Assembly: GCF_000687475.1 (NCBI RefSeq)
Contig: NC_057317.1
Location: 930,001 to 994,000, forward strand
Reading direction: 5' to 3'
DNA: 64,000 nucleotides
Source of the DNA: Ustilaginoidea virens
Taxonomy: Eukaryota > Ascomycota > Sordariomycetes > Hypocreales > Clavicipitaceae
In this document: positions 37,166 through 57,208 of the stretch, piece by piece
Position numbering within the stretch: position 1 is the stretch's first letter
Layout: the number at the start of each line of letters is the position of its first letter
Notes under the pieces: model-generated
What the model was told of the DNA's origin: nothing
Seen by the model: the letters and a program-made list of their open reading frames with translations, nothing else
The model's database searches: none
Position numbers and translations under genes: made by a program

Positions 37166-37560
37166 GGTGGCAACTGGTCAAGAAAGGCCCATTCTCCAGC
37201 AGGGACAGGGACGGGGGTTCCGTGGCGGATAAGGGAAGGACGACAAGTCCGGTAGCCGAGAGTCACTAGAGGCTTGCGGCACATGCAGTTACAGTTTGTG
37301 AGCAAAAGTGAACCGCTTGCCTCAAATTGTCGCTGAAGATGGTGTGGTGTTGGGGGTGGACCTGTAGAAGCGCGAGCGACAAGGGTATCAAGATGTTAAG
37401 GCTTGATGGGGCAATCGCGAGGTCCACATGGCGCTATTCGTGATGACTCAGTGATGAGGGAAGGACGCAGTCTCCACTCCACGTCCGGGGTCCGGCTGCT
37501 TAATTTCTTTCAGGCGATTTCAGGTGCTTTTAGGTGATTTTAGGCGTTTGCCTGGCAGGA
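37166..37560. other. PSO2 promoter region up to the transposon island
   Basis: 395 bases between the PSO2 start and the target duplication of the outer retrotransposon. Near 37512-37550 there is a short direct repeat of TTTTAGGTGATTTTAGG type. No gene. Confidence 0.5.
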
Positions 37561-37565
37561 GGTGC
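37561..37565. other. Target site duplication GGTGC (left copy) of the outer element
   Basis: GGTGC lies directly before the 5' LTR and is repeated at 54738-54742 directly after the 3' LTR, as expected for integrase-mediated insertion. Confidence 0.88.
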
Positions 37566-37915
37566 TGTCGGAATCGCTGTCGCAAGGTGCCCAATTGGGC
37601 ACCAATTGGGCACATTGCGACGGATGTGCCGCGCATACCCGATGCGCACGATGTGGCCACTTTGGCCCCTTTTGCCCCTTTACCCCTGAGCCCGGTAGGG
37701 CACGCGGGCAGCCCGGCCCGACTGCGCCGATGCACATAACAACGGCACGCACAAAAAGGCCACATCGTATAATTCCTCTTTTACTTCCTTTCTTCCCTCT
37801 TAGTTAGATAGTCATAATCAAAGAAGTAATCATACCTTTAACCGGTGACCTTACGGTACTTAATACCACGCGCGCAACCCTACGTACAACTGGGTACCCC
37901 TTAGTAAAACCAATA
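37566..37915 (+). repeat. 5' LTR of the outer element
   Basis: 350 bp, starting TGTCGGAATCGC and ending CCAATA. It aligns without gaps to the 3' LTR, with about 18 differences by eye, all transitions. The terminal CA is mutated to TA in this copy. Confidence 0.9.
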
Positions 37916-40900
37916 CTAATCAGTAAAGTTGAAGTTCACTTCACAGATTAGCTAAGACCAGCAAGAAGAGACGGTTTAATTAAATCGTACTAATAAAGAA
38001 CGTGATCTAGCCTATTCAGAGGAACGGCTACAGATGTCACGAACCAAGGGATAAACTAATTATATCTAACCTTCCCTACTCGTCTATCACAAGGAACAAT
38101 CGCTAAATATCACACTAATAGTATAACAGCCAGTGAATACTATTAGCAGGCATATAAACGCAGGTTCTTATGCAAGCGACTCAGAGCCTCATAATAGTAA
38201 AGAACCTATTTACCATTACATTCAATAGTCAAATAAGCAACCGGAACGCCTATAACATCCTACCCGACTATTGCTTCCTTCCTTACTTCCTTCCTAACCT
38301 TCTTCCTTACTTCCTTCTTTCTTTTATTAATTACTTCCTTCTAATACATACGCCTACCCCTATCAACATTACGATAGAAGGATTACTACCTAAAAAGCTC
38401 AGGCCTCACGCCGATACCATCACAGAGGACTAGGCTAATTCAAAAGGGCAGATTAACCCTACTAATGCTACGGACGAACAGTTATACAATCGTATCGCCT
38501 ACCTTATTAATAACTATACAATAGGCGATGAGATAGATGATAATCTATAGGAATAATTCCGTGATGATTATAAGGAATAGACCAAAGAGCTATTTAACCG
38601 TATCAATAAACAGCTTCTACGGGAATTCCAAACAACCCTACGGGAACGTAGGGTATATATTAGAAGCACAAGATCGTTAGCAGTCAAGACCCTTACCTAC
38701 TATCTCCAATAAGAGTATATGCCTAAGTGGCCTTAAAAGGAAATAGATCTCCAATTTGCACGCAAAACCTTTATATCCCGGTTAAATCTAGATAGGGAAT
38801 AATCAGTCCCTACTGCTTACACCGAACGGGAGATACAAATAAACCAGAATGCCCCCTCTATTACAAGCTCGAGGAATTCACTCCCTACTATAATTATTCG
38901 AATACCCTCATAGATACCGTCACGAATACCCTCACGAACACCCTCGCGATTACCCTCATAAAGACCTTTATAAGCCCCTTCGACCCCCAGGGACTTTGCA
39001 ATACTAATAGCACAATAACCCCTCATCCCTCTATTTATATTAAAAAAGGCCCCTATTCCCACTGAAGAAGAAAGGGGCCGGCCGCTATAATAAAAAGGGA
39101 AAGCGCCTATTTATAGGCCGCTATTTGAGATAGGGGAAGGCTCCCGATAATAGCATATAATAGACGATGACTATAGCCCAACCGACTAAATACTATACCC
39201 TAGAGGTTATACCCCTAGCCGAGCTAGCCGAGGCGGCTATCCTAATGCCTCTCGGAATTATAGTATGCCCATAAAAGCCAGAGGTCAGGTTATACGCCCC
39301 GATAATATGCTTCCCTCAATAGAGGGTCCCGATAGTAATACGCTCGAGGTCACCAATATCAATATCCCCTAATATACCGCTACTAACGGCACCGGGTAAG
39401 CCCCTAATATTAATAAAACAGCTGCCCTTAATACTAGATATTACGAATCATAGTATCGCAGCCACAACCCATAGGCACAAATGCCTTAACTATCGGCTCA
39501 AATGCCTATAATGCCAAGGATAGGCACGGCACCAGACCCCTCCCGGCACTATCGGCCTACCTAGGCCGATAAACGGACCATCTTAACGGGAGGACTAATA
39601 AACCTAAACCGACCCGGGTTATAGGATAACCCAGCCAAAGATCCCGCTAGCCTACCGTAAGGCTACCAATAAGCCGTTCTAGAATACCCTCCGGAACACC
39701 ACTAAAAAGATTATACCCGAAGAGCCTATATAAAGGCCGGATTTAACGATATTTCGAAGAAGATATTTAACCTTTTACATAGCTATCGTATAGAGGATAG
39801 ATATAGCAGCAAAATAGATAACTTCCTTATACCAAAAGTAGTATCCTTTAAGAGCAAGTGCCGCCTTCTAGGACTGCCCGATTATGCATTCGCTAGAGCT
39901 TTTCAAATTATACTAATCGGCGATACTAAGATGTATTACTTTAATAATATCGAACGCATTCGTAATACCCTCACTTTCAACAAAATAGTGCGCAAAGTCA
40001 AAAGCTATTTCGAAAATAAGAGTATAGAGCAATTCTATTTATACCGTTGGAATAGAATAATACTCTAATCAACTATTGCGAAACATCCTAATAAGTCAAA
40101 GCTAGAATGCCTCAATATCCTATTAGAGGAACTTCAGCGCCTATATTATAGTCTTTTTCCCCCCTTTACAGCTAATACAGAGCTTTATCGGCAAGTGCTT
40201 AACGCTATAAGGGATACCCCTAAGTATAGCCAGGCCTTATATTATTATGCCCCTATATTCGAAGGCCTCGCTGCTGACCTACGGCGATCCCTTTCTATCT
40301 ATAAGACTACCTATATAACTCAATAGTATTATTTCCTTTAATAGCAGCCCCAACAACATCAGGATATTGAAGATATTAATAGTAATATAGCGTTATTTAC
40401 AGATCGTAGATACAGTCAATCTTACAACCGGTATTAATGCCCCTAACGATACAGACCCCCTTAACGGCAATAATAGAATCGCGCCTTTCTAGCTAGGCCT
40501 TATCAAAAAAGATGCTTCGTTTGCAATAAATTAGGATATTAGTTATCCAACTATACTAATAAAGAGCAATAAGAATTAAAGGCATAATGGCTAAAGAACC
40601 GTTCCAATCGTACCGCCCCTAATAATAGGAAATTCCATATTTTCATATAAGAATATAAAGGGACTGCCGATTAAAGCCACCTCGATGATGCCGATTTTAA
40701 TAATATCGCTGAAGATATTAAAGTCATAATAGCAGGGGTTATATATTAGGAAACAGAAGACGCTATCGCACCGTAAATTACAGCCACTTAGTACTTCTTA
40801 ACCCCTGCGCAAACAGAACTATTACCTTTTTTATCTATCGAGATATTGCAAGCCTTACAAGATAAATCATACCGATATACCTTCCTATAAATTGACCCCT

Positions 40901-42324
40901 TCCGAATGCCTTTACCAGACTATAATTCTGCCTTTCTAGAAGAAGAACGCTATAGTAACCATACCTTCCGCGGAATCCTACCGGATACTAATGCCTCCGG
41001 CCTATCCACAGCAGGCATAGGTTAAGCAAGAGCCCTAATAAAATTAATGAAATCTTTAACGATTAAGTCAATAGATATATAGCATACTATTAATTTCGGA
41101 GCAGGTTCTGCCATATCTTTTAGTATATTAAATATCCCGACGATATTCGGTAATATCCCCTTCCACATTCTTAATAGCAGCACCCCTTTTCTCTATTCTA
41201 TTACGGATATAGATAGGATAGGCATAAAGCTGGATAATATTAATAACTTGCTTATTAAAGGGGATATTAAGGTTCTAATTATCAGGAAATAGGGATATCT
41301 ATAGTAGACTCTCAATGCCATAGATACTACTGCCTTCTACCTCTTATTATAGGAAATCCATTAGCTTTATCGTCGATTTAGGCACCCCTCTATCAACAGG
41401 CTCTCTAAATTGCTTCAATAGGCTGGTTATAACGATATTAACCGCAATATCATCGAGAGTATTACCCATATATGCCATTAATGCCAGATAAACGCAAAGG
41501 CACCTAACCGGTTTAAATTTACCCTCAAGGATAACAATACTAGCCAATTCAACTACGAAATTATTATCGACATCCTTTATATTAACAATCGGCCGGTATT
41601 ATATATCGTAGATACTGCAACAAGCTTCCAAGCAGCTAGATTCCTCGATCCACAAAAATAGAAGGCCCAAGACATCTAGAATACCCTCAAGGAATACTAG
41701 ATCGATATTTACTTTAGCCCGCCGGATTAGATAATTCATAATACTAGTCCAAACTTCGCCTCTACTGAATTCCGTCATAATGCCCGGCTTTTCTCTATTA
41801 ATGTAAATAAAATCCCCATCGAAGCCTACTACAGCATTAGTAAAGTCGAGAGATACTATGCCCCATTACGCAGAGCCTATACTATCGTCAATAAAGAAGT
41901 AGGCGACCTATTAACAAAGGAATAGAAACTACAGCTAGCTATTAAAGCCGTCAATAATTCTACTAGGCCTAACGGCCTCGTACCTACGTTACTAGTCTTT
42001 AGAGCATATCCCCAACTTACGGATAACTCACCCCTTAGCCTATTAGTATCACAATATGCCTTAATATTACGAAAGGCTACTAACGAAGCTAGGAAATGCC
42101 TCGCTAAACGACAGGTTCGCAATGCCTTCGCCCAATAGAACGGCCTAAACACATAGCCTATCCACCGACTACCCCTATAGTCCGACGTATAGGTATAGAG
42201 AGAAAAGGGTAGATAGCATAAGCCGTACCGGCTAATCAGCCTTGAAGGTAAGACCTATATCGTGCAGATGCCACATGGCCCCGTTAAGTTCTAATTAACA
42301 GTCGTCAAACCCTACAACCACAAC
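37916..42324 (+). pseudogene. Outer element gag and integrase region, degraded by stop codons
   Basis: Translation through stops gives a gag-like stretch (about 39770-40440), a CCHC-type knuckle region beginning CFVCNKLGY (about 40510), then a copia integrase. The integrase has an HHCC-like FRHPSINRL...CHQCQINAKAP region (about 41370-41500, with one Gln or Trp now TAG). Its core has IIIDILYINN, IIHNTSPNF and SISKVERYYAPLRRAYT. The second acidic residue of the DDE triad reads Asn (CATAAT at about 41737), consistent with a G-to-A change. The frame stops at the ACAAC where copy A inserted. The mutated state is evident from TAG/TAA codons every few dozen residues. Confidence 0.8.
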
Positions 42325-43090
42325 TGTTAAAATCCTATAGTAGCCTACTAGGCTGCTGGTCTAATGCCCTATTGGTCTACTAACCTTCTGGCCCTTATAC
42401 CGTCTCTTAGACTTACGGTATTCTTACCAACCCAGGCCTTTGCCTTTTACCTTAAGGATTTTCAGTGGATTATTTACTGTATATCAAGTAAGGTAGGCCT
42501 TGTTGAAAAGGTGTGGCATTGCTAAATTAGCGTGGTTGCCTACTAGCGTGGTGGCGGCCTACTAGCGTGGTGTGGCATTGCTAAATTAGCGTGGTGGCCT
42601 ACTAGCGTGGTGGCTAGTCCACTAGTGTGGTGGTTAGTCACTAGCGTGGTGGCTAGTTACTAGTGCGGTGACTAATTACTAGTGCGGTGGTTAGGGTGGT
42701 TGGAAAGGCCGGATATAGCGGGGTTGCTGACGTATTATAGCGAGCATTACGGGGAGCCTTCTTACTGGCTACCCTGAATGCCTGGGCCCACCCCTCCTTC
42801 GTATATATATAGGATAGCTTTTCCCCTTCTTTCTAGATAGTAGAAGGGTAGCACAATCGAGTCTGTTAATGCACTACATGCCTCTTAACTTCCACCTTCC
42901 CTGCGTTTCTGGTTATCTTATATTTGCCTTGCCTTTACACTTGCCCTGCTTTATAGCACTTGTATAGTCTTAGGACTTGGTGAAAAATCTAGTATTTATA
43001 CTAAGATTAGTTCACAGGTCGCAGACAGTCTTGTGCCATCTAGCTAGCTAGTAAGGCTCTGCTTTTATAGTGACCTTGAGAATTGCAATA
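42325..43090 (+). repeat. 5' LTR of element A (766 bp)
   Basis: Starts TGTTAAAATCCTATAG and ends GAATTGCAATA, followed at once by a primer-binding-site-like GGTTATGAGCCCGGG. It contains a block of imperfect ACTAGCGTGGTGG repeats (about 42530-42690) and a TATATATA promoter-like box near 42803-42810. Confidence 0.88.
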
Positions 43091-43105
43091 GGTTATGAGC
43101 CCGGG
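43091..43105 (+). promoter_or_regulatory. Primer binding site of element A
   Basis: GGTTATGAGCCCGGG directly abuts the LTR and resembles the initiator-Met tRNA primer sites of copia elements. The same sequence follows the LTR of element B at 45967-45981. Confidence 0.6.
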
Positions 43106-43809
43106 TTTTTACTTCTTTGTTTTTACCCTACCTCTTTTGTGTTCACCCTTTAGTCTCTCTTGCTTATTAGTACTACTAATATAGCTATCCTTTGGTATCC
43201 TTGGCTTACCCTTATTACCTTTGGCTTACCCTTTGTTACCTACGGCATTACCCTGCGGCAATCAACGGCGTACCTAACGGCAACTTACGGCGTAACCTTA
43301 CGGCACTTTTAGCGTAACCTTACGTTATTTTTGGAGTAACCTACGGCACCTACGGATTTTATAGTGTGATATCTACTACACTATACCACTGTATAACACC
43401 TTTACACCTAGTGCACGTTATCTACTGCACTGTACGGCACCTGTTATACTCTCCCACTTATAGCACTTTTGGTACGGTACTTACGGCACCTTTTATATTA
43501 CGGCACTTACGGCACCCACGGCACCTACGGCACCTACGGCACTTACGGCACCTTTATATTACGGCACCTATAAGCACCTTAAACACCAACGCTATAGTAC
43601 GGACTTGCACAACGCCTACGGCATCTGTGCTTTTATACTGAGACCTACCGCTATATTCTGCGGTTACCTTTTATAGTAGGCTACTAGCCACTATATTTAC
43701 TGGCTATTTTACCAGTTATTCGATTCGACTATTTTGCTAGCTATTTAGCTGGTTATTCATCTGTTCCTACAGCTATTGGCACCATTTTTAACGACTTTTA
43801 ACCACTATA
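43091..43809 (+). other. Untranslated leader of element A with CTACGGCAC repeats
   Basis: 719 bases between the LTR and the gag start. Tandem CTACGGCAC/TTACGGCAC nonamers are densest at 43500-43551 and scattered from about 43243. No gene. Confidence 0.7.
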
Positions 43810-45245
43810 ATGGCACAGTCTAGGCCTTCCACTTATAAGGCCACTTTGGATTCCGACTCTAAAGCTGATCTTACTGTACAACTACAGCTAGATATGGACT
43901 ATATAAAGTCCCAGATGAACACCCTAACTATCCTTATACAAGGCTTAGTTAGTAGGCGAAATAGTAACGTTCCTACTATTATAATTAGCAAGGAACTAGT
44001 AGAGGCTACTAGCCCTACTATCTCCGGTCCTACTAATATGAACAGCAAGGACCCTGTAGAGGCTACTAGCCCTACTAATGCTAATGCCGCTTCTACTAAT
44101 AATAGCAAGAATAATTCTACTAATAATAAGAAAAAGAAGCAGCAACAGAAGAAGAAACAAGACTCCAGCAATAATCAGCAAGATGTTGAGGCCTTTATTA
44201 TAGGCAACTATAATACCCAGGATACTAATATATCCTATTCCTCTTCTTCTACCACTATATCCACTGATAACCAGCCCTTAGCTATAAGCTATAGTGCTAA
44301 ATTAGGCGGTAGGACCCCGAAGGATGCCCTTCTTTACGATACAGGCTCCACTTGTCATATTGTTAATGATAAGAAGCATTTCACCACTTTTCACCACTTT
44401 GAGAAGGATGATAAGCCTGTTATTACTACTGGTGGTGGCCCTATTTCCCCTACTAGTTGGGGCACGGCACGATTTACTGTGCTACAGGGCGTTAATCCCA
44501 CCAAATGGGGTATTATAGAGCTCAAGAATGCCCTATATATTCCTACCTTGGATATTAATATTATTAGCGGTGTAAAGCACTATGCCGCTAAAGGGGTATT
44601 AATTAAAAATCAGCTTTGGTCTAATATACAGCGCCAACGGTTACTAACTTTACTTAAAGAAGCCGGCTTTCATCCCTCTGTTAAGCAAGCTATTTTACTA
44701 AAGAAGGCCCTATACGGGCTAAAACAAGCACCCCGCAAATGGCAACACCGGCTAAAAGACCTGATTTCTAGTGAAGGCTTCTTACCTTTAGCCTCTGATG
44801 CTGCCGTCTTTTATAATAAGCAAACCAGCACCTTTATCGTCACTTATGTTGACGATTGCCTATTAGTTGGTCCAAATATAACTTATATTAACCAGCTAAA
44901 AAGGAAATTCCATAAGGTCTATACTATAGAAGACCGCGGTCCGGCTTCCTTCTTCCTAGGTGTACAGATTATACGAAATAGGAAGGAAGGTCTATTGTGG
45001 CTACACCAAGCCCAATTTATAGCAGAAGTTCTAGCTAAATTCGGCTTACAGGATACTAAACCTCAGCTTATTCCACTTCAACCAGGGATTCTAAATGAAT
45101 TTAGTGGAAAAGATCTTAGCCCCACTGATCAAAGCCTTTATCAGAGCCTTACTGGCATTATAATGTGGCTTATGATGATGACTAGACCCGACCTAGCATT
45201 CCCTACCCAATACCTTTCTCGGTTTATATCCAAGGCAACTAATAT
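43810..45245 (+). pseudogene. Element A gag-protease-RT open frame, deleted and then split by element B
   Basis: Frame from MAQSRPSTYKATL. It has a gag N-terminus, a Thr/Ser-rich stretch, a Lys/Asn/Gln-rich linker, then an aspartic protease with an intact DTGS motif (Asp177). At 44612 it jumps straight into the RT palm (KALYGLKQAPRKW), with YVDD at 346-349. Compared with element B a 996-bp segment is absent exactly between two AGCTTTGGTC repeats, leaving the frame intact. It ends at the AATAT target where B inserted; the remaining RNase H part resumes at 50637. The last codons before the stop at 45259-45261 come from B's LTR. Not functional as it stands. Confidence 0.85.
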
Positions 45246-45966
45246 TGTTAAAATCCTATAGTAGCCTACTAGGCTGCTGGCCTAATGCCCTACTGGCCTA
45301 CTAACCTTCTGACCATTATACCGCCTCTTGGACTTACGGTAGTCTTACCAACCTTAGGCCTTTGCCTTTTACCTTAGGATTTTCAGTGGATTATTTACTG
45401 TATATCAAGTAAGGTAGGCCTTATTAAAAAAGGTGTGGCATTGCTAAATTAGCGTGGTGGGCCTACTAGTGTGGTGGCTAGTCCACTAGTGTGGTGGGTA
45501 GTCACTAGCGTGGTGGTTAGTCACTAGCGTGGTGGCTAATTACTAGTGCGGTGGTTAGGGTGGTTGGAAAGGCTGGATATAGTGGGGCTGCTGACGTATT
45601 ATATATGTGGCATAGCAAGCATTATGGGGAGCTTTCTTACTGGCTACCTTGGATGCCTGGGCCCACCCCTCCTTCGTGTATATATAGGATAGCTTTTCCC
45701 CTTCTTTCTAGATAGTAGAAGGGCAGCACAATCGAGTCTGTTAATGCACTATATGCCTCTTAACTTCTTACCTTCCCTGCGTTTTCTGGTTATCTTATAT
45801 TTGCCTTGCCTTTACACTTGCCTTGCTTTATAGCACTTGTATAGTCTTAGGACTTGGTGAAAAATCTAGTATTATACTAAGATTAGTTCACAGGTCGCAG
45901 ACAGTCTCGTGCCATCTAGCTAGCTAGTAAGGCTCTGCTTTTATAGTGACCTTGAGAATTGCAATA
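45246..45966 (+). repeat. 5' LTR of element B (721 bp)
   Basis: Starts TGTTAAAATCC and ends GCAATA. It is shorter than the LTRs of A because it has fewer ACTAGCGTGGTGG units. Confidence 0.92.
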
Positions 45967-46700
45967 GGTTATGAGCCCGGGTTTTTACTTCTTTGTTTTT
46001 ACCCTACCTCTTTTGTGTTCACCCCTTAGTCTCTCTTGCTTATTAGTACTACTAATATAGCTATCCTTTGGTATCCTTGGCTTACCCTTATCACCTTTGG
46101 CTTACCCTTTGTTACCTACGGCATTACCCTGCGGCAATCAACGGCGTACCCCTACGGCAACTTACGGCGTAACCTTACGGCACTTTTAGCGTAACCTTAC
46201 GTTATTTTCGGAGTAACCTACGGCACCTACGGATTTTATAGTGTGATATCTACCACACTATACCACTGTATAACACCTTTGCACCTAGTGCACGACACCT
46301 ACTGCACTATACGGCACCTGTTATACTCTTCCACTTATAGCACTTTTGGTACGGCACTTACGGCACCTTTTATATTACGGCACCTATAGCACCTACGTCA
46401 CCTACGGCACCTACGGCACCTACGGCACCTACGGCACTTACGGCACCTTTATATTACGGCACCACATAAGCACCTTAAATACTAACGCTATATTCTGGAC
46501 TTGCACAACGCCTACGGCATTTGTGCTTTTATACTGAGACCTACCGCTATATTCTGCGGTTACCTTTTATAGTAGGCTACTAGCCACTATATTTACTAGC
46601 TGTCCAGCTAATTGCTCGACTATTTTGCCAGCTATTTAGCTGGTTATTCATCTGTTCCTACAGCTATTGGCACCATTTTTAACGACTTTTAACCACTATA
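45967..46700 (+). other. Leader of element B: primer site and CTACGGCAC minisatellite
   Basis: Primer-binding-site-like GGTTATGAGCCCGGG at 45967-45981, then a leader with CTACGGCAC nonamers densest at 46390-46447. No gene. Confidence 0.7.
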
Positions 46701-49700
46701 ATGGCACAGTCTAGGCCTTCCACTTATAAGGCCACTTTGGATTCCAACTCTAAAGCTCATCTTACTGCACGACTACAGCTAGATATGGACTATATAAAGT
46801 CCCAGATGAATACCCTAACTACCCTTATACAAGGCTTAGTTAGTAGGCAAAATAGTAACGTTCCTACTATTACAATTAGCAAGGAACTAGTAGAGGCTAC
46901 TAGCCCTACTATCTCCGGTCCTACTAATATGAACAGTAAAGACCCTGTAGAGGCTATTAGCCCTACTATCCAACCTTCTGCTATTACGACTAGCAAGGAC
47001 CCTGTAGAGGCTACTAGCCCTACTATCCAACCTTCTGCTATTACGACTAGCAAGGACCCTGTAGAGGCTACTAGCCCTACTACTATTAATGCCGCTTCTA
47101 CTAATAATAGCAAGAATAATTCTACTAATAATAGGAAAAAGAAGCAGCAAAAGAAGAAGGAACAGGACTATAATAATAGCAGCAAACAGCAAAATATTGA
47201 GTCCTTTATTATAGGCAATTATAATACCCAGGATACTAATATATCCTATTCCTCTTCTTCTACCACTATATCCACTGATATAAGCTATAGTGCTAAATCA
47301 GGCGGTAGGACCCCTAAGGATGCCCTCCTTTACGATATAGGCTCTACTTATCATATTGTAAATGATAAGAAGTATTTCACCACTTTTCACTATTTTGAGA
47401 AGGATGATAAGCCGGTAATTACTACTGGTGGTAGCCCTATTTCCCCTACTGGTTGGGGCACAGCACGATTTACTGTGCTACAGGGCGTTAATCCCACCAA
47501 ATGGGGTATTATAGAGCTCAAGAATGCACTATATATTCCTACCTTGGATATTAACATTATTAGCGGTGTAAAGCACTATGCCGCTAAAGGGGTACTAATT
47601 AGAAATCAGCTTTGGTCAGCAAGCCGTAAATGCATCGGCATTTTTAATTTTGAAAAATACGGCTTTTTCCTTCTACAGAAAGGAATAGACACATCACTAC
47701 TGCATCAACCTTGCAGCCATTATACTATTACTAATAGTATATCAGTAGAGGTCCCTAGCCCTACTAACCCTGCTGATTATAGTAATCCTGAGGATACTAC
47801 TATTACCCCCGTTCCTACTACTGCGACTAGTAAGGAACCTGTAGAGGCTACTAGCCCTACTACTAACCAGCCCGCTACCACAACTAGCGAAGACCCTGTA
47901 GAGGCTACCAGCCCTACTACTAACTCTCCCGCTATTACGACTAGCGAAAATCCCGCTATTACGACTAGCGAAAATCCCGCTATTACGACTAGCGAAAATC
48001 CTGTAGTGGCTACTAGCCCTACTCCTGCCCTTATAGCTGCTGATACAGAATATCAGAAGCTATTACAATTAGCCGGCATTTGGCATGTACGGCTAGGGCA
48101 TATAGGTATTCAGCTACTTAAAAAGACCTATGCTAATACCTACCTTGTCTACCTTCTAAAGAAGAAGGTTGTTACTAAAACAACCTTTATTACCTTTATC
48201 CATCAAAATGAAGGTATAGGCCCTATTTCTAGTGGCCTAGAAGGAGACTTTCACAAAGGGCAAAATACAGGTTCAGAGGGGGTATTTAGCAGTAAAGAAC
48301 CTGCTATTTTACTGGATGACCTAGAAAGCATTCCTGACCCTACTAACTCTGCTAACCTTACTAGCATTACTAGCACTAATGCTATACCGGATGACCTAGA
48401 AAGCATGCCGGACCCTACTAATTTTACTAGCATTACTAATGCTACCCCGGATGATATTACTAATACTAATGCCACCGTGGATTACCTTCCTAAGTCAGAA
48501 GACTTTATAGGCGCCTTTCTAAATAGCGAACTTTCTGAGACTATTTATATGGATATTCCTGATGGATTCCTTGAATTTACGGAAAGTTTACTAACTGATA
48601 ACAAGCTTTGGTCTAATATACAGCGCCAACGGCTACTAACTTTGCTTAAAGAAGCTGGATTTAACCCTTCTATTAAGCAAGCTATCTTGCTAAAGAAGGC
48701 CCTATACGGGCTAAAACAAGCACCCCGCAAATGGCAACACCGGCTAAAAGACCTGATTTCTAGTGAAGGTTTTTTACCTTTAGCTTCTGATGCTGCCGTC
48801 TTTTATAATAAGCAAACCAGCACTTTTATCGTCACCTATATTGACGATTGCCTATTAGTTGGTCCAAATATAACTTATATTAACCAGCTAAAAAGGAAAT
48901 TCCATAAGGTCTATGCTATAGAAGACCGCGGTCCGGCTTCCTTCTTCCTAAGCGTACAGATTATACGAAATAGGAAGGAAGGTCTATTATGGCTACACCA
49001 AGCCCAATTTATAGCAGAGGTCCTAGCTAAATTCGGTCTACAGGATACTAAACCTCAGCTAATTCCACTTCAACTAGGGATTCTAAATGAATCTAGTGGA
49101 AAAGACCTTAGCCCTACTGATCAGAGCCTTTATCAGAGCCTTACTGGCACTATAATGTGGCTTATGATGATGACTAGGCCCGACCTAGCATTTCCTACCC
49201 AATACCTTTCTCGGTTTATGTCTAAGGCAACTAATGTGCATTTAAATGCTGCGAAAGGCAGCTTTAGCTACCTTAAAGGCACTGAGAACCTAGCTATTTG
49301 CTTTACTAAAAGCAATCAACAGCCTATTATAACCGCTTATTCTGATAGCGATTTTGCTGGCTATAAAGAAACCTCTAAATCTACTGGAGGCTTCTTAACT
49401 ACTATTAATAGTGGTCCTATTAGCTGGCGTTCCAAGCGAGCCTCTTTAGTAGTATTATCTACTTTAGAAGCTGAATCTGATGCATTACTTGAGACTATCC
49501 GTGAGGTACAGTGGCTTTCTAACCTTTGTAAGGAGCTGGAAATCGATATTTTACGCCCTATACCGTTATACTGCGATAATCAGGGCTCTATTTCGAATTC
49601 TAATGACCCTAACCAGCATGCTCGCACTAAGCATACACTATTAAAATTCCGGTATATTAGGGAGCAAGCACAGCTGGGCTTGGTTAAAATTACCTACTTA

Positions 49701-49796
49701 CCTACTAATAGTATGCCTGCTGACGGTCTTACAAAGCCACTGCCGGGCCCTAAATTTACTAGGTTCCGCGAGTTACTAGGTCTTAGGGCCTGCTAA
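46701..49796 (+). CDS. Copia-like Gag-Pol derivative of element B, integrase core missing
   Basis: 1031 residues without stops. In order: gag region with two copies of a 19-residue Thr/Ser unit (ATSPTIQPSAITTSKDPVE) and a basic Lys/Gln patch; a protease motif that reads DIGS instead of DTGS (Asp212), so the protease is probably inactive; a second Thr/Ser-rich repeat zone (about 370-440); a GAG-preintegrase remnant WHVRLGHIGIQLLKK (about 460-475); no integrase DDE core; RT palm with KALYGLKQAPRKWQ and YIDD (713-716); and RNase H with AYSDSDFAGYKE and YCDNQGS, ending in PADGLTKPLPGPKF. RT fingers are absent. The intact length despite missing enzymes suggests either selection for Gag or a very recent insertion. 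It is a transposon protein, not a host gene. Confidence 0.85.
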   Translation: MAQSRPSTYKATLDSNSKAHLTARLQLDMDYIKSQMNTLTTLIQGLVSRQNSNVPTITISKELVEATSPTISGPTNMNSKDPVEAISPTIQPSAITTSKDPVEATSPTIQPSAITTSKDPVEATSPTTINAASTNNSKNNSTNNRKKKQQKKKEQDYNNSSKQQNIESFIIGNYNTQDTNISYSSSSTTISTDISYSAKSGGRTPKDALLYDIGSTYHIVNDKKYFTTFHYFEKDDKPVITTGGSPISPTGWGTARFTVLQGVNPTKWGIIELKNALYIPTLDINIISGVKHYAAKGVLIRNQLWSASRKCIGIFNFEKYGFFLLQKGIDTSLLHQPCSHYTITNSISVEVPSPTNPADYSNPEDTTITPVPTTATSKEPVEATSPTTNQPATTTSEDPVEATSPTTNSPAITTSENPAITTSENPAITTSENPVVATSPTPALIAADTEYQKLLQLAGIWHVRLGHIGIQLLKKTYANTYLVYLLKKKVVTKTTFITFIHQNEGIGPISSGLEGDFHKGQNTGSEGVFSSKEPAILLDDLESIPDPTNSANLTSITSTNAIPDDLESMPDPTNFTSITNATPDDITNTNATVDYLPKSEDFIGAFLNSELSETIYMDIPDGFLEFTESLLTDNKLWSNIQRQRLLTLLKEAGFNPSIKQAILLKKALYGLKQAPRKWQHRLKDLISSEGFLPLASDAAVFYNKQTSTFIVTYIDDCLLVGPNITYINQLKRKFHKVYAIEDRGPASFFLSVQIIRNRKEGLLWLHQAQFIAEVLAKFGLQDTKPQLIPLQLGILNESSGKDLSPTDQSLYQSLTGTIMWLMMMTRPDLAFPTQYLSRFMSKATNVHLNAAKGSFSYLKGTENLAICFTKSNQQPIITAYSDSDFAGYKETSKSTGGFLTTINSGPISWRSKRASLVVLSTLEAESDALLETIREVQWLSNLCKELEIDILRPIPLYCDNQGSISNSNDPNQHARTKHTLLKFRYIREQAQLGLVKITYLPTNSMPADGLTKPLPGPKFTRFRELLGLRAC

Positions 49797-49901
49797 CTTA
49801 TACTAACTTACTAAGGTTTTTCCTATGTTTTTCCTTAGGACCTTTATTGCATTTTCTTTCCCTATCCTTTATACGATTAGCTTGATACTACAGTAGCTAA
49901 T

Positions 49902-49910
49902 CAGAGGGGG
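49902..49910 (+). promoter_or_regulatory. Polypurine tract of element B
   Basis: A purine run AGAGGGGG lies directly before the 3' LTR, the expected priming site for plus-strand synthesis. The equivalent in element A is at 51314-51322. Confidence 0.7.
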
Positions 49911-50631
49911 TGTTAAAATCCTATAGTAGCCTACTAGGCTGCTGGCCTAATGCCCTACTGGCCTACTAACCTTCTGACCATTATACCGCCTCTTGGACTT
50001 ACGGTAGTCTTACCAACCTTAGGCCTTTGCCTTTTACCTTAGGATTTTCAGTGGATTATTTACTGTATATCAAGTAAGGTAGGCCTTATTAAAAAAGGTG
50101 TGGCATTGCTAAATTAGCGTGGTGGGCCTACTAGTGTGGTGGCTAGTCCACTAGTGTGGTGGGTAGTCACTAGCGTGGTGGTTAGTCACTAGCGTGGTGG
50201 CTAATTACTAGTGCGGTGGTTAGGGTGGTTGGAAAGGCTGGATATAGTGGGGCTGCTGACGTATTATATATGTGGCATAGCAAGCATTATGGGGAGCTTT
50301 CTTACTGGCTACCTTGGATGCCTGGGCCCACCCCTCCTTCGTGTATATATAGGATAGCTTTTCCCCTTCTTTCTAGATAGTAGAAGGGCAGCACAATCGA
50401 GTCTGTTAATGCACTATATGCCTCTTAACTTCTTACCTTCCCTGCGTTTTCTGGTTATCTTATATTTGCCTTGCCTTTACACTTGCCTTGCTTTATAGCA
50501 CTTGTATAGTCTTAGGACTTGGTGAAAAATCTAGTATTATACTAAGATTAGTTCACAGGTCGCAGACAGTCTCGTGCCATCTAGCTAGCTAGTAAGGCTC
50601 TGCTTTTATAGTGACCTTGAGAATTGCAATA
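49911..50631 (+). repeat. 3' LTR of element B (721 bp)
   Basis: No difference to the 5' LTR was found on reading the two side by side. Confidence 0.92.
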
Positions 50632-50636
50632 AATAT

Positions 50637-51201
50637 GCATCTAAATGCTGCGAAAGGAAGCTTTAGCTACCTTAAAGGCACTGAGAACCTAGCTATTTGC
50701 TTTAGTACTACTAAAAGCAACCAACAGCCTATTATAACCGCTTATTCTGATAGCGATTTTGCTGGCTGTAAAGAAACCTCTAAATCTACTGGAGGCTTTT
50801 TAACTACTATTAATAGTGGTCCTATTAGCTGGCGTTCTAAGCAAGCCTCTTTAGTAGTGCTATCTACTTTAGAAGCTGAATCTGATGCATTACTTGAGAC
50901 TATCCGTGAAGTACAGTGGCTTTCTAACCTTTGTAAGGAGCTGGAAATTGATATTATACGCCCTATACCGCTATACTGCGATAACCAGGGCTCCATTTCG
51001 AATTCTAACGACCCTAATCAGCACGCTCGCACTAAGCATACGCTATTAAAATTCCGGTATATTAGAGAGCAAGCCCAGCTGGGCTTGGTTAAAATTACCT
51101 ATTTACCTACTAATAGTATGCCTGCTGACGGTCTTACCAAGCCACTGCCGGGCCCTAAATTTACTAGGTTCCGCGAGTTACTAGGCCTTAGGGCCTGCTA
51201 A
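50637..51201 (+). pseudogene. Element A RNase H end, separated from its frame by element B
   Basis: Continues the frame of 43810-45245 across the AATAT duplication. It shows AYSDSDFAGCKETSKSTGG, LSTLEAESDALLETI, YCDNQGSISNSN and the C-terminal ELLGLRAC. The apparent upstream ATG at 50611 lies in B's LTR and is not a real start. Confidence 0.85.
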
Positions 51202-51322
51202 CTTATACTAACATACTTTTACTAAGGTTTTTCTTATGTTTTTCCTTAGCACTTTTTACTGCATTTTCTTTCCCTATCCTTTACACGATTAGCTTGCTAC
51301 TACAGTAGCTAATCAGAGGGGG

Positions 51323-52186
51323 TGTTAAAATCCTATAGTAGCCTACTAGGCTGCTGGTCTAATGCCCTATTGGTCTACTAACCTTCTGGCCCTTATACCG
51401 TCTCTTAGACTTACGGTATTCTTACCAACCCAGGCCTTTGCCTTTTACCTTAAGGATTTTCAGTGGATTATTTACTGTATATCAAGTAAGGTAGGCCTTA
51501 TTGAAAAGGTGTGGCATTGCTAAATTAGCGTGGTTGCCTACTAGCGTGGTGGCGGCCTACTAGCGTGGTGTGGCATTGCTAAATTAGCGTGGTGGCCTAC
51601 TAGCGTGGTGGCTAGTCCACTAGTGTGGTGGTTAGTCACTAGCGTGGTGGCGGCCTACTAGCGTGGTGTGGCATTGCTAAATTAGCGTGGTGGCCTACTA
51701 GCGTGGTGGCTAGTCCACTAGTGTGGTGGTTAGTCACTAGCGTGGTGGCTAGTTACTAGTGCGGTGACTAATTACTAGTGCGGTGGTTAGGGTGGTTGGA
51801 AAGGCCGGATATAGCGGGGTTGCTGACGTATTATAGCGAGCATTACGGGGAGCCTTCTTACTGGCTACCCTGAATGCCTGGGCCCACCCCTCCTTCGTAT
51901 ATATATAGGATAGCTTTTCCCCTTCTTTCTAGATAGTAGAAGGGTAGCACAATCGAGTCTGTTAATGCACTACATGCCTCTTAACTTCCACCTTCCCTGC
52001 GTTTCTGGTTATCTTATATTTGCCTTGCCTTTACACTTGCCCTGCTTTATAGCACTTGTATAGTCTTAGGACTTGGTGAAAAATCTAGTATTTATACTAA
52101 GATTAGTTCACAGGTCGCAGACAGTCTTGTGCCATCTAGCTAGCTAGTAAGGCTCTGCTTTTATAGTGACCTTGAGAATTGCAATA
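51323..52186 (+). repeat. 3' LTR of element A (864 bp, with a 98-bp internal duplication)
   Basis: Matches the 5' LTR of A apart from one substitution noticed (GTTGAA against ATTGAA) and a second tandem copy of a 98-bp segment (51553-51650 and 51651-51748) in the GTGGTGG repeat block. 766 plus 98 gives 864 exactly. Confidence 0.88.
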
Positions 52187-54108
52187 ACAACCCCGATATA
52201 GACGATCCCGAAGATATCGTCTATACCAAAGGCCCGGCCCGTCCCGGCAAGATAAAAGTCAGGATACCAGCTGCAGCCGCACCTGCAGCCGCGACATATC
52301 TATCGCTAGCCACTAGCCCTAATTAAGTCAGGCCAGTATCACTAGCAAGGGTGGTATCCAATATTATAATTAATGAGGACCAAAAAGAGGCCCTCGTTAA
52401 TGCTATCGCTTCTAATACCGTTATTAACACCTCTTTCCTAACCGCTAAAAAGCAAGCCGACCTACAGCTTACTAGCTAATTACGCCGGGAAGGCAAGATC
52501 ACGACCCCTAGAGACCCTTTTGAGCAGTCGGACCGTACAGAAATTAAAGCATTATAAGCCCGTAATATATTCTAATTTATTACCTTTAATATCGATTAAT
52601 ATGGAGCCTAACGCCTATTTAACTCACATATAGTACGAGAAATCAAGGGCAAAGGCACGGATATACCGTACGAGAAGTCTAGGCTTATAATATAAGGTCA
52701 TAGTGATAACGAAAAGCAATTGATATTGACTCAATCCCCTATAATTTAACGGGCGAGTCAAAGGCTACTAATATTAATAGCTCCATCACTACAACATTCT
52801 CACGGCCTATTCCTTTAGATACGTGATATTACGCAGGCTTACGTGCAATCTTCTATAACCCTCAATCATTCAATTATCGCTAAGCTACCTAAGCAAATAG
52901 CACATCAATACCCCGATAATACAATCATAGAAGTGGTAAAGCCACTATACGGAATAGCTAAAGCAGGCACCCACTAGTGGGCGACATACTTCCGGCACCA
53001 TCGTGAGAAGTTGGGCATAACCACTTCAACCTATGACCCCTATTTGCTAATATCCGCCGGTAATAACCGCACTAATGATACTAACCATGCTAGCGATACT
53101 AGCACATACTTCGGTATTGTGGGTATACAGACTGACGATACCCTTAGCCTAAGTAATAATGCCTTCTTCTAACGGGAAGAATTAGAGCTTACTAAGGCAG
53201 GCTTTAATGCCAAGCCTAAGACGAGGCTATCACCAACTATACCCCTAATATTCAACGGATGCGTGCTAATAGTTACTACCGACGGCACAATGACGTTATA
53301 CCAAAAAGGTCAAAGCATAAAGATCACGACCATCGACAAGAATGCGCCCACGGCCCAGCGTAATTATATCAAGCAACGCGCTCGCGGTGCTTACATAGCT
53401 ACGGTCTGCCAGCCCGAGGCATCTTTTGACCTATCTATCGCAGCACAATACTAGCAACCTGACCCTAAAGATATCGCGAGGTTAAATAAACGCCTTCAAT
53501 AGCAGCGTAACAACCAGGATCGTGGCTTACGGTATATCAATCTGGCCCTTACTATAGCCAAACTCTTTGTATTTGTTGACGGATCCTTTGCCAATAATAA
53601 AGATTTAAGCTCCCAGATTAGTTACGTAATTATGCTAGGGAATGAGGCAGATACTACGGATAATGCCTTCCAGCTGACCAGTAACATTATTACTTATAGC
53701 TCTATAAAGAGCAAGCGGGTAATACGCAGCATACTCGCTTCGGAGCTGTATAGTATAGTGCAAGGGGTCGATATCGCATACGCGATAGGCACGACCCTCA
53801 ATATAATTACCAGCAGGCTAGGATTGCCGAAGATCCCTACGGTTGTATATACAGATTCGTTTTCGCTATACGAATGCCTTATTAAGCTAGGTACTACTAA
53901 GGAAAAAAGGCTCATAATAGATATTATAGCCCTACGATAGTCATATAAGCGCCGGGAGATTTATAAGATCCGTTGGATCAATAGGAATAATAATCTCGCC
54001 GACGCAATAACTAAGGGAATGCCTAACAAAGCCCTTAAGACCTTTATCGACCGAAATCAGGCTGTTATACGTGTGGAAGGGTGGGTAAAGAGGCCGGTCA
54101 ATGTCTGA
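52187..54108 (+). pseudogene. Outer element reverse transcriptase and RNase H, degraded
   Basis: Continues the outer pol frame after the ACAAC duplication. Stops are frequent in the first 800 bases; then FLRDITQAYV-, VKPLYGIAEAGTHWW- and YDPYLLISAG-like blocks of a copia RT become readable (about 52800-53060, with shifts or stops). RNase H is clearer: FVDGSFANNKDLS (about 53570), ILASELYSIVQGVDIAYA, VVYTDSFSLYECL and NLADAITKGMP. It ends at a TGA at 54106-54108, 279 bases before the 3' LTR. TAG codons replace expected Gln and Trp. Confidence 0.8.
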
Positions 54109-54387
54109 CTACATTTGGAAGGTATTAGTGATGTTATGGGTGGCAAGTGTGTGGATTTTCCTATGTTCAATGTTGTGTGCAATACTGCCCCTTTTCTGCC
54201 CCTTTATTTTGGCTGCGATATTCAACATACCGGCTATACGGTATGAGCCTGTACAAGCCGGCCGCGCGGCGCGACGGCGTTATCGGCGGCACAACCTGCC
54301 GAGACCGCGCCGCACTTTTCTTTCTATATGTGCGCCTTACATCCTAGCGATTCCGATATTTGCTTCTATAAAGAGAGAAGCTGCCAG

Positions 54388-54737
54388 TGTCGGAATCGCT
54401 ATCGTAAGGTGCCTAATTGGGCACTAATTGGGCATATTGCGATGGATGTGCCGCGCACACCTGATGCGCACGATGTGGCCACTTTGGCCCCTTTTGCCCC
54501 TTTACCCCTAAGCCCGGTAGGGCACGCGGGCAGCCCGGCCCGACTGCGCCGATGCACGTAATAACGGCACGCACAAAAAGGCCATATCGTGTAATTCCTC
54601 TTTTACTTCCTTTCTTCCCTCTTAGTTAGATAGTCATAATCAAAGAAGTAATCATACCTTTGACCGGTGACCTTACGGTACTTGATACCACGCGCGCAAC
54701 CCTACGTACAACTGGGTACCCCTTGGTGAAACCAACA
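54388..54737 (+). repeat. 3' LTR of the outer element
   Basis: 350 bp, TGTCGG to CCAACA. The same length as the 5' LTR, no gaps, transition-only divergence. Confidence 0.9.
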
Positions 54738-54742
54738 GGTGC
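54738..54742. other. Target site duplication GGTGC (right copy)
   Basis: Matches 37561-37565. Confidence 0.88.
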
Positions 54743-54770
54743 AACTTGCCTGTAGAAGGCAGGTTCCTAC

Positions 54771-54850
54771 GAGACTACATATCAACCGACCTATGCCCCC
54801 CCCTAGTCATTCGACCCCCCCATAATAACTTAACAGACCTGACCAATGCT
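54771..54850 (+). repeat. Left terminal inverted repeat of the MITE
   Basis: 80 bases pairing with 55396-55475; the outer 12 bases are the least conserved (GAGACTACATAT against GAGGGTACAGGT). Confidence 0.82.
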
Positions 54851-55395
54851 CTTTCCTAATATAGAGATACGCTAATAAATAGTAGTAGATCCTTTAATCT
54901 ATAGTAGCCACTAGACTGTAAGTATTTTTATATATATTTTTCTATAGTGAGTGACTTCCTTTCTTTTATTAGGTAGGTACCTAGGTCCTTAGGTACTATA
55001 CGTAGAAAAAGTACCTTTATATATATTTTTCTATATAAAGTGACTTCTTATATTTCTACTAAGTACCTAGTACCTACCTACCTAGGTACCTACCTACCTA
55101 GGTAGGTACTAGGGATAGAAAGAGAGGTACCTTTATATATATATATTTCTATAGAAAGTGACTTCTTCAATATTCTTATTAGGTACTCTTACGTAAGAAC
55201 CTAATAAAACAGCAGAGAAAGTACTTCTTCTTATATTTTCTAAAGAAAGTGACTTCTTTAATTTCTTTTACTAGGTACCCCTACCTAAGAACCTAGTAAA
55301 ATATCAGAGAAAGTACTTCTCTATATAGTTTTCTATATAAAGTGACCTGGCCCACTATTCCCTAATAAACCAATTATATTAAGAGTGTAGCCCAC

Positions 55396-55475
55396 AGCAA
55401 TGGTCAGGTCAGTTAAGTTATTATGGGGGGGTCGAATGACTAGGGGGGGACATAGGTCGGTTGACCTGTACCCTC
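55396..55475 (-). repeat. Right terminal inverted repeat of the MITE
   Basis: Inverted partner of 54771-54850, with about eight mismatches by eye. Confidence 0.82.
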
Positions 55476-55484
55476 GGTTCCTAC

Positions 55485-55820
55485 CTGCTAAGGTCTGGTC
55501 TGGTCTGGTCTGGTCTGGTCTGGTCCATACAAGGCACGGGTCAACTGCCCGTTATTATTATTATTATTAGGAGATACCTACCTAGGTAGGTAGGTACCTA
55601 CCAGGTAGGTAAGTAGGTCTGGTGCCTGGTGCCTGGCACGAAAGTCTTCGTAGCGACTCAACCCATTGCCGGCCGACTTTCCTTCGATTTTCTGATCCGA
55701 CGACTGAACCTGAGGAAAAAGTCGATCGGCTGTCATATATTGCCAGAATCGCGCGGCGACATGTCTTGTGAGCCTCCTTTTCTTCCTCAGCGTTCGGCGT
55801 CGACATGCCTCATGTTAATG
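55485..55820. other. Intergenic region with TGGTC repeats, 5' of the DUF7053 gene
   Basis: Holds a TGGTC pentamer array (55492-55525), a TTA triplet run (55552-55568) and an ACCTACCTAGGTAGGT cluster (55574-55615). An in-frame extension of the next gene opens at 55629, but it lacks family similarity. Confidence 0.6.
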
Positions 55821-56348
55821 ATGCCGTCTCCAGCTTTGTTCAACACCACCGCAACTCTCAGACATGTGACTGCTTTACCCGAGAACCTCAACCCTGCCAA
55901 GGGCATCCAGCTGCTGCACGACCACTCGCTAGTTATACAGTCCAACCCCCTGATGACAAAGTACGAAGCCATCAGCAGGCCTACAGAACACCAGCCCAAA
56001 CTGCCCGAGGGGCGTGGCCTCGACGGTGCCGGTTCGCCAAAGCACTATCGAGTCACAGACAAGGTCCATACACTCCCAGCCGGCTTGTGGGACTCGGATG
56101 TGGTTAGCACGTATGAGTTCTTCAATCTGGAGAATGGCGTGTTTGTGAGAATACGGAGCCCTCTGGATACAACCATGGAGACTGTGTGGAGCGTCCAGGA
56201 GAGAGCAGAAGCTGACGGACATGAGCTGGTGGAAGAGGTTGTGGTCAAATGCTCGCGACTAATACTTGGTGCCGTCAAAAGTCTTTGTGAGTCGGGCTGG
56301 AGGAGTATGCACGAAAAAATGGTGCAAATGATGCAGCACGAGGCGTGA
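55821..56348 (+). CDS. DUF7053-type fungal protein of unknown function
   Basis: 175 residues from MPSPALFNTTATLRHVTALP. The pattern of an N-terminal H-V-T-x-LP strand, LLHDHSLVIQSNPLMTKYE, a middle YRVTDKVHTLPAGLWDSDVVSTYEF and a C-terminal EEVVVKCSRLILGAVKSL helix is that of fungal DUF7053 proteins, which look like a START/SRPBCC-type lipid-binding fold. No enzyme motif, signal peptide or membrane segment is visible. In-frame ATGs at 55812 and 55818 are also possible starts; the upstream frame to 55629 is rejected as leader. The function is unknown, and the family call is from pattern memory. Confidence 0.7.
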   Translation: MPSPALFNTTATLRHVTALPENLNPAKGIQLLHDHSLVIQSNPLMTKYEAISRPTEHQPKLPEGRGLDGAGSPKHYRVTDKVHTLPAGLWDSDVVSTYEFFNLENGVFVRIRSPLDTTMETVWSVQERAEADGHELVEEVVVKCSRLILGAVKSLCESGWRSMHEKMVQMMQHEA

Positions 56349-57208
56349 ATCTACAGCAAGCAGAGTCGCAGTCGTAGTCGAGACGGGACGCCAACGATGG
56401 ACATTTAGAAGTGGGTGGGTGCCAGGAGCGACGTCCTTGCATGTTGCATTGCTTATCCAGACAGCGAACGGGGAGTATCCATAGATGATTGCATTTTTGA
56501 AGTTTACAATTTTCCCGCAGACAGGTCGGATTGATGGATGCTGTTTGTCGGAATCAATCTTGATGCCGTCATGACCACCGGTACCTGGTACCTGCCTCCT
56601 GCCTCCTACCTCTCTCTTACTTGTCTGGTTTGGTTCTCAGTGCCGTCTGCGCCTGCCGTCTGCCGTCTGCTGCCTGCCTCCTGCCGCCTGCCGCCTTGCC
56701 GCGATCGAATCGATTAGGTTGGGGCCCAGGATGCCCCAGGGGCCACCACCAGCTGCTGAGTTCTGAACGTCCCCAATGAATGCCCCACCACTTAACCTTT
56801 CAAACCTGATCAGGGCCCTTCAAACCAGACGGAATCTCTCGCACCGGTCCTCCTCATACAGAGTCCAGAGTCCAGAGTCCCAAAGTCCAGAGCCCAAAAG
56901 TCCAGAGCCCAAAAGTCCAGAGCCCAAAAGTCCAGACTGCAAACCAACTCCCAACACTGGACTCGACCGACCGACTTCCTTCACTCCTTACCAACAATTG
57001 TCTCCTCGGTACTCAGTAACTGGAACGTCCAGGACCCTGACACCCCCTCGAGTAACTCGCATGGCCGTGGCCCGCTTGCATAGTCGCATTCGCTTTCGAC
57101 GCTATTCCATGTGTACGCCCGACGCGCCATGCCATCAATCGGTTAATCTTTACCCGCGTATTTAGTCCATTGCGGCTTTTTGCCGCAACCTGCTCACCAG
57201 TCACAGCC
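56349..57208. other. Intergenic region and 5' leader of the kinase gene
   Basis: 860 bases. It contains CTGCCGTCTGCC-type repeats (56640-56700) and a 17-bp tandem AGAGCCCAAAAGTCCAG (about 56862-56937, three clear copies plus degenerate ones). An open frame through the tandem reads SPEPKSPEPK but has no other support. Confidence 0.55.
56862..56937. repeat. 17-bp tandem repeat upstream of the kinase gene
   Basis: Three clear copies of AGAGCCCAAAAGTCCAG, preceded by shorter AGAGTCC units. Confidence 0.8.

What the first reader, a model, noticed from the sequence alone, without database searches (positions are those of the whole stretch)
37561..54742. Three copia-type elements nested one inside the other, each with an intact 5-bp duplication
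The outer element (37566-54737) has GGTGC on both sides, element A (42325-52186) has ACAAC, and element B (45246-50631) has AATAT. Removing B restores A's pol frame across AATAT (ACT AAT ATG CAT), and removing A restores the outer frame across ACAAC. The order of events is therefore fixed: outer first, then A, then B. Such a complete, datable nest is uncommon in a gene-dense window.
Basis: seen in the sequence. Interest (0 to 1): 0.75.

Follow-up and report, generated by a model that had tools for sequence, protein, structure and literature searches.

The report
Three nested fungal Copia retrotransposons
Three "copy-and-paste" mobile elements sit one inside the other in the chromosome of the rice false smut fungus; the insertion order is clear and of an ordinary kind, but the two inner ones lack enzymes needed to move themselves, so they probably moved with proteins supplied by intact relatives.

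Summary
Three LTR retrotransposons lie at the stated coordinates, each with exact 5-bp duplications at its LTR ends; all are on the + strand and the order outer, A, B is forced. Other copies in the same genome carry the uninterrupted sites: 8 of 8 tested for B, 5 of 5 tested for A, three of these in exact register. All are Copia by domain order or homology. Contig lengths identify the host as Ustilaginoidea virens UV-8b.

Three corrections. (1) "Datable" fails for the outer element: 18 of 18 LTR differences are transitions, 15 in CpA/TpG context (RIP-like); A (1 of 766) and B (0 of 721) cannot be separated by age. (2) Nests are ordinary in fungi. (3) A and B are defective: Gag core, integrase and part of RT are missing. 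B belongs to a multi-copy non-autonomous subfamily (35 of 40 scored places; 10 of 10 tested copies with perfect duplications); A is a further-deleted form met once. LTRs, a half-tRNA-iMet primer site and PPT remain, so movement in trans is the best explanation. The four deletions keep the frame, which is suggestive only.

The parts
37561..37565 (.). Outer element target-site duplication GGTGC, left copy
   Evidence: exact match to right copy; left host flank 37200-37565 single copy in the genome, 1 candidate of 1
54738..54742 (.). Outer element target-site duplication GGTGC, right copy
37566..37915 (+). Outer element 5' LTR (350 bp)
   Evidence: 350/350 aligned to 3' LTR, 18 transitions, 0 transversions
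54388..54737 (+). Outer element 3' LTR (350 bp)
   Evidence: LTR query gave 76 matches in the own genome with 40 of 673 candidates scored
41209..42324 (+). Outer element integrase part, stop-ridden
   Evidence: tblastn of P0061 onto 41209-42342 and P0096 onto 40978-42324; both proteins match rve, below Pfam's cut-off
52381..54105 (+). Outer element RT-RNase H part, stop-ridden
   Evidence: 51-84% identity to fungal proteins, best Ustilaginoidea virens P0053
42320..42324 (.). Element A target-site duplication ACAAC, left copy
52187..52191 (.). Element A target-site duplication ACAAC, right copy
42325..43090 (+). Element A 5' LTR (766 bp)
51323..52186 (+). Element A 3' LTR (864 bp, with 98 extra bases of tandem repeat)
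43091..43105 (+). Element A primer-binding site GGTTATGAGCCCGGG (first 14 nt complementary to the iMet tRNA anticodon arm)
43810..45245 (+). Element A truncated gag-pol frame, left part (no gag core, no integrase, no RT motif A)
   Evidence: Pfam Pol_BBD and RVT_2 profile 112-243; motif table
44612..44621 (+). Element A private deletion junction; AGCTTTGGTC occurs at both ends of the segment that B still has
50632..51201 (+). Element A pol frame, right part (RNase H), continuing beyond B; its first 5 bases are also the right copy of B's duplication
   Evidence: frame open, no internal stop
51315..51322 (+). Element A polypurine tract AGAGGGGG
45241..45245 (.). Element B target-site duplication AATAT, left copy
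50632..50636 (.). Element B target-site duplication AATAT, right copy
45246..45966 (+). Element B 5' LTR (721 bp)
   Evidence: identical to 3' LTR
49911..50631 (+). Element B 3' LTR (721 bp)
45967..45981 (+). Element B primer-binding site GGTTATGAGCCCGGG
   Evidence: first 14 nt complementary to the anticodon arm of both iMet-tRNA-like matches found
46701..49796 (+). Element B single open frame, 1031 aa: protease region (DIG where A and L057 have DTG), repeats, integrase remnant, RT from motif A on, RNase H
48135..48140 (+). Junction of B-type integrase deletion; TAATACC is shared by both ends in the full-length relative L057
48445..48500 (+). Junction region of B-type RT N-terminal deletion, ending just before RT motif A
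49903..49910 (+). Element B polypurine tract AGAGGGGG

Best explanation
Shown: three successive retrotransposon integrations, all on the + strand, in chromosome 2 of Ustilaginoidea virens: the outer Copia element first, then A into its pol between integrase and RT, then B into A between its RT and RNase H motifs, each with a 5-bp duplication. Shown: A and B belong to one Copia family and lack the Gag core, integrase and part of RT, while keeping LTRs, primer site and polypurine tract. Inferred: their RNAs were packaged, reverse-transcribed from a half-tRNA-iMet primer and integrated by proteins of full-length relatives still present in the genome; the deletions arose at short repeats, most simply by template switching during reverse transcription. 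Inferred: the outer element was mutated by RIP or a RIP-like process before A and B arrived, since A and B show no such burden although other copies of B's subfamily do.
For: Exact duplications and LTR ends. Uninterrupted sites: B site in register in 8 of 8 family places tested; A site without insert in 5 of 5 outer-family places tested, in exact register in 3, off by 3 nt and by 45 nt in 2. Proteins aligning to both outer halves, 7 of 8 tried. A 1091-base piece of B spanning its integrase and RT deletion junctions matched in full at 35 of 40 scored places, B included. 10 of 10 further copies tested have perfect 5-bp duplications, so the defective form itself inserts. A relative with a 1660-aa frame and Pol_BBD, gag_pre-integrs, rve, SH3 and RVT_2 matches exists (L057; rve, SH3 and gag_pre-integrs below Pfam's curated cut-offs), and at least three listed places have a 1660-aa frame. 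Cis signals. Shared repeats at deletion ends: AGCTTTGGTC in A, TAATACC in B. RIP contrast: outer LTRs 15 of 18 changes CpA-type; between A and B, 8 CpA-type changes on A's side and 14 on B's among 77 differences in three segments; 11 of 17 B-type copies compared have 3 or more stops in RT-RH.
Against: No long reads and no second strain: the outermost empty site was not seen. No expression or transposition data. A's last deletion was met only in the window, so it may postdate A's insertion. The right flank of the nest is another repeat, so unique host sequence there is short. Direct Pfam search of the outer pieces gave no RT or integrase, and among its four homologues scanned only P0061's RVT_2 passes the curated cut-off; P0053 matched no family.
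Confidence: 0.9

Rival explanations
1. The nest is an assembly artefact: similar copies of a high-copy family were joined wrongly.
For: A and B are members of a family with hundreds of first-look candidates (541, 661), the setting in which misjoins happen.
Against: The three pairs of junctions carry matching 5-bp duplications and codon phases agree; a misjoin would not produce them. The assembly has 8 contigs for 37.16 Mb.
Confidence: 0.03
2. A's own last deletion happened in place, after A had inserted as a longer element, by recombination between two AGCTTTGGTC repeats; of that deletion A's insertion says nothing.
For: The A junction was found only in the window (40 of 689 candidates scored).
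Against: A already shares with B the loss of the gag core, so its parent was probably non-autonomous too, and movement in trans is needed either way.
Confidence: 0.4
3. The open 1031-aa frame of B is kept by selection (translation protects the RNA, or the RT-RNase H piece works), not merely by youth.
For: The four internal deletions seen, three in B and one more in A, keep the frame (1 in 81 by chance, my arithmetic). B against the full-length relative in RT-RH: 31 synonymous, 10 non-synonymous changes, ratio 0.09. RT motifs A, B, C and the RNase H motifs are kept.
Against: Only 5 of 11 copies checked are open, and these five are nearly identical. 11 of 17 B-type copies compared have three or more stops in RT-RH. 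The protease motif is DIG. One B-type copy (L082) has a 3' part that groups with RT-complete L055 at support 1.00, so recombination with functional relatives can mimic purifying selection.
Confidence: 0.25

Closest known systems
Nested transposable-element clusters of fungi, e.g. the 78 clusters of Mycosphaerella graminicola (PMC4522978; passages seen)
   Same: LTR elements inside LTR elements, an LTR base element with a 5-bp duplication, RIP-type CpA to TpA changes
   Different: Here all three members are Copia, two are one family, and the inner two lack the mutation load of the outer
Fungal Copia clades FunCo and GalEa (PMC5445492; passages seen, abstract among them)
   Same: Copia elements of Pezizomycotina, high copy number in some species
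   Different: Clade assignment was not made here; the best protein hit of B outside the window's genome is from Phyllachora maydis, 47% identity over 40% of the query
Non-autonomous LTR retrotransposons with deleted coding regions (LARD, BARE-2; recalled) and wheat autonomous/non-autonomous pairs (PMC9744471; search listing only)
   Same: Defective elements amplified beside full-length relatives with shared LTRs
   Different: B keeps a single 1031-aa frame through three in-frame deletions
Drosophila copia half-tRNA priming (recalled)
   Same: Primer site complementary to the anticodon arm of initiator tRNA-Met
   Different: Fungal host; 14-nt match shown by sequence only

Membership tests
LTR retrotransposon | Two direct LTRs flanked by a short duplication | tested here: met
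   all three elements
LTR retrotransposon | TG...CA LTR ends | tested here: inconclusive
   outer 3' LTR TG...CA; A and B TG...TA, with 5-bp duplications supporting that end in 10 of 10 further B-type copies tested
LTR retrotransposon | Primer-binding site and polypurine tract | tested here: met
   A and B; outer primer site not recognised
Copia (Ty1/copia, Pseudoviridae) | Integrase encoded before RT | tested here: met
   full-length relative L057: rve 732-826 (31.0 bits, cut-off 32.6), RVT_2 1288-1420; outer element through homologues P0061, P0096, P0098, rve before RVT_2 in 3 of 4 scanned, rve below cut-off in each. A and B themselves have lost integrase
Copia (Ty1/copia, Pseudoviridae) | RVT_2-type RT | tested here: met
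   A and B over the cut-off; outer pieces no direct hit; of four homologues one over the cut-off, two below, one without
Autonomous Copia element | Gag, protease, integrase, RT, RNase H all present | tested here: not met
   A and B lack gag core, integrase and part of RT; outer element full of stops
Non-autonomous derivative mobilised in trans | Defective form present at many sites with its own duplications | tested here: met
   B: 35 of 40 scored places, 10 of 10 tested duplications. Not met for A's own junction, which was found once
Non-autonomous derivative mobilised in trans | Moves only when helper proteins are present | not testable with these tools
   needs an experiment
RIP-mutated repeat | Excess of CpA to TpA transitions | tested here: met
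   outer LTRs 18 of 18 transitions, 15 in CpA/TpG context; no such excess in A against B

The most novel reading that the evidence does not exclude
A fungal Copia lineage is being whittled down stepwise (integrase lost first, as in L053, probably with the Gag core; then the RT part before motif A, as in B; then RT motif A, as in A) with every step in frame, because the RNA must be translated through to escape decay or to supply a still useful RT-RNase H piece, while it spreads on helper proteins and swaps 3' halves with full-length relatives.
Probability: 0.2. Interest if true: 0.5.

Novelty: new member of a known kind. Interest (0 to 1): 0.27.

Why it matters
The nest fixes a relative order for one heavily mutated and two clean insertions, so at this site RIP-like mutation very probably acted before A and B arrived. 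The B-type subfamily, with dozens of copies, full-length relatives and an intermediate form in the same genome, is a good natural case for asking why defective retroelements keep reading frames. The published repeat table for UV-8b gives Ty1/Copia 170 copies and 0.05% of the genome within 16.89% total LTRs (PMC13233505, passages). That is about 18.5 kb, which this one 17.2-kb nest nearly fills, so most Copia there is uncounted or left unclassified.

Tried and rejected
Direct Pfam search of the outer element in three frames, both pieces, stops as X, gave no RT and no integrase; the only retroelement hit was gag_pre-integrs at E 0.25. Its class was settled by homologues. Simple LTR dating was set aside because of RIP. 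The low dN/dS of B against full-length relatives was rejected as proof of selection, because L082 looks like a recombinant and many B-type copies differ from B largely by RIP-type changes. The outermost empty site could not be sought in other strains: this genome has no relatives here; only uniqueness of the left flank was tested. In the listings of the paper searches I saw no title or abstract start describing this nest or subfamily; these are capped lists of an open-access library. In two RIP surveys the main text does not hold the word Ustilaginoidea (supplements not searched). A CCHC pattern was absent even in the full-length relative and was not used.

Rows dropped: of 11 B-type copies for which a left piece was fetched, C6:2380913 was left out because its 5' LTR start lay outside the piece; its frame was not tested either. 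Of 7 more B-type pieces, only L080 and L082 covered the RT-RH segment fully enough for the tree. For the B site 8 of the held family loci were tried, not all.
Full report
What was checked. The window lies on contig 2 of a genome of 37,158,136 bases in 8 contigs. The lengths of contigs 1-6 sum to 34,647,527. The published total for the chromosomes of Ustilaginoidea virens UV-8b is 37,060,086 and its last one (NC_057322) has 2,412,559 bases (PMC13233505, passages), exactly the remainder. The best hit of the outer element's RT is also U. virens (83%), and a neighbouring kinase is 76-80% identical to proteins of Conoideocrella, Metarhizium and Pochonia. The host is therefore U. virens UV-8b (inferred from these figures; the genome itself is unnamed).

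The nest. Outer: 350-bp LTRs, GGTGC. A: 766- and 864-bp LTRs, ACAAC. B: 721-bp LTRs, AATAT. All are on the + strand. The B site is in register in 8 of 8 other family places tested, and the A site has no insertion in 5 of 5 other outer-family places tested; in three of these the two sides are in exact register, in one they are off by 3 nt and in one by 45 nt. Codon phases agree on both sides of A and B. Fungal proteins align on both sides of A in the outer element, 7 of 8 tried: P0061 residues 1-374 to 41209-42342 (running a few codons into A) and 417-976 to 52381-54093. The order outer, A, B follows. The left host flank (37200-37565) is single copy.

Class. Three of four outer homologues scanned carry rve before RVT_2, the Copia order, with rve under Pfam's cut-off in each and RVT_2 over it in one. 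The relative L057 of A and B has one 1660-aa frame with Pol_BBD, gag_pre-integrs, rve, SH3 and RVT_2 in that order; Pol_BBD and RVT_2 pass their cut-offs, the others fall short. A and B LTRs begin TG and end TA; that end is supported by duplications in 10 of 10 further copies tested. The primer site GGTTATGAGCCCGG is the reverse complement of 14 nt of the anticodon arm of the initiator tRNA-Met, seen at two places; half-tRNA priming of this sort is recalled from Drosophila copia.

A and B are defective. B's 1031-aa frame has lost the Gag core, the integrase catalytic motifs and the RT part upstream of motif A; RT motifs A, B and C and the RNase H motifs remain, and the protease motif is DIG. 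A has lost Gag core, integrase and RT motif A. A's extra deletion lies between two AGCTTTGGTC repeats; the integrase deletion of B lies between two TAATACC repeats of L057. An intermediate, L053, has the same integrase deletion with RT complete; its Gag region was not read, but repeats like those that replace the Gag core in B lie at the same distance upstream. A 1091-base piece of B spanning its integrase and RT junctions matched in full at 35 of 40 scored places, B included, out of 739 first-look candidates, a lower bound. In 10 of 10 tested copies (of 11 fetched) the 5-bp duplication is perfect; LTR pairs differ by 0-7 substitutions, 37 of 38 of them transitions. B and 4 of these 10 keep the 1031-aa frame (5 of 11). 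A's junction was met only in the window (40 of 689 candidates scored).

Mutation and time. Outer LTRs: 18 of 18 differences are transitions, 15 in CpA/TpG context, 8 and 7 in the two LTRs. Outer internal pieces have 16-144 stops per frame. Between A and B, CpA-type changes number 8 on A's side and 14 on B's, of 77 differences over three segments, so neither carries such a burden, although 11 of 17 B-type copies compared have three or more stops in RT-RH. With the rate 1.05e-9 used for fungi (PMC4905642, passages) nominal ages are outer 24 My (4 My without RIP-type changes), A 0.6 My, B 0 with an upper bound near 2 My. A and B are not separated by age; nesting alone orders them.

How ordinary. 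Nested clusters with 5-bp duplications and RIP are described in Mycosphaerella graminicola (PMC4522978, passages). Here the 3' flanks of 10 of 10 tested B-type copies have 27-46% GC, against 54.7 and 56.7% for host DNA beside the nest. Three of the 10 show a flank match to the outer family or to a family LTR, one more only a weak 84-base match, six none, the library being only the families of this window. Insertion into AT-rich, probably repeated DNA is thus common.

Selection or recombination. In RT-RNase H, B differs from L057 by 31 synonymous and 10 non-synonymous changes. This could mean that the frame is useful, but one B-type copy (L082), which has the B deletion junction, groups with RT-complete L055 at support 1.00, and in L083 the 3' part differs from B far more than the 5' part (78 against 32 changes). 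Exchange with full-length relatives during reverse transcription would explain both. I leave frame-keeping as an open, less likely reading.

Noticed in passing
54771-55475, duplications 54762-54770 and 55476-55484: A short terminal-inverted-repeat element with a 9-bp duplication GGTTCCTAC; 19 bp separate its left duplication from the outer element's right one. It is repeated (199 matches, 40 of 123 candidates scored), and another copy (L077) has AGACCAGAC on both sides. The 9-bp size suggests a Mutator-like MITE (recalled).
   Followed up: partly
L053 (C5:3408753-3412041): Intermediate form: same integrase deletion as B but complete RT.
   Followed up: partly
L082 (C5:1200111-1203231): B-type copy whose 3' part groups with the RT-complete copy L055, a likely recombinant.
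   Followed up: partly
46851-47084 and 47802-48026: 57-bp in-frame repeats (VEATSPT...) occupy the place of the lost Gag core and also occur between protease and the integrase remnant.
   Followed up: partly
about 51540-51640: A's 3' LTR carries 98 extra bases of a tandem repeat absent from its 5' LTR, the main difference between the two.
   Followed up: no
whole genome: A published table lists Ty1/Copia as 0.05% of UV-8b, about 18.5 kb; the 40 scored hits of about 1.2 kb alone exceed that.
   Followed up: partly
55617-59680: A DUF7053 frame and a nak1-type kinase frame lie side by side just right of the nest; in Ophiocordyceps polyrhachis-furcata one predicted protein carries both domains (P0231).
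   Followed up: no
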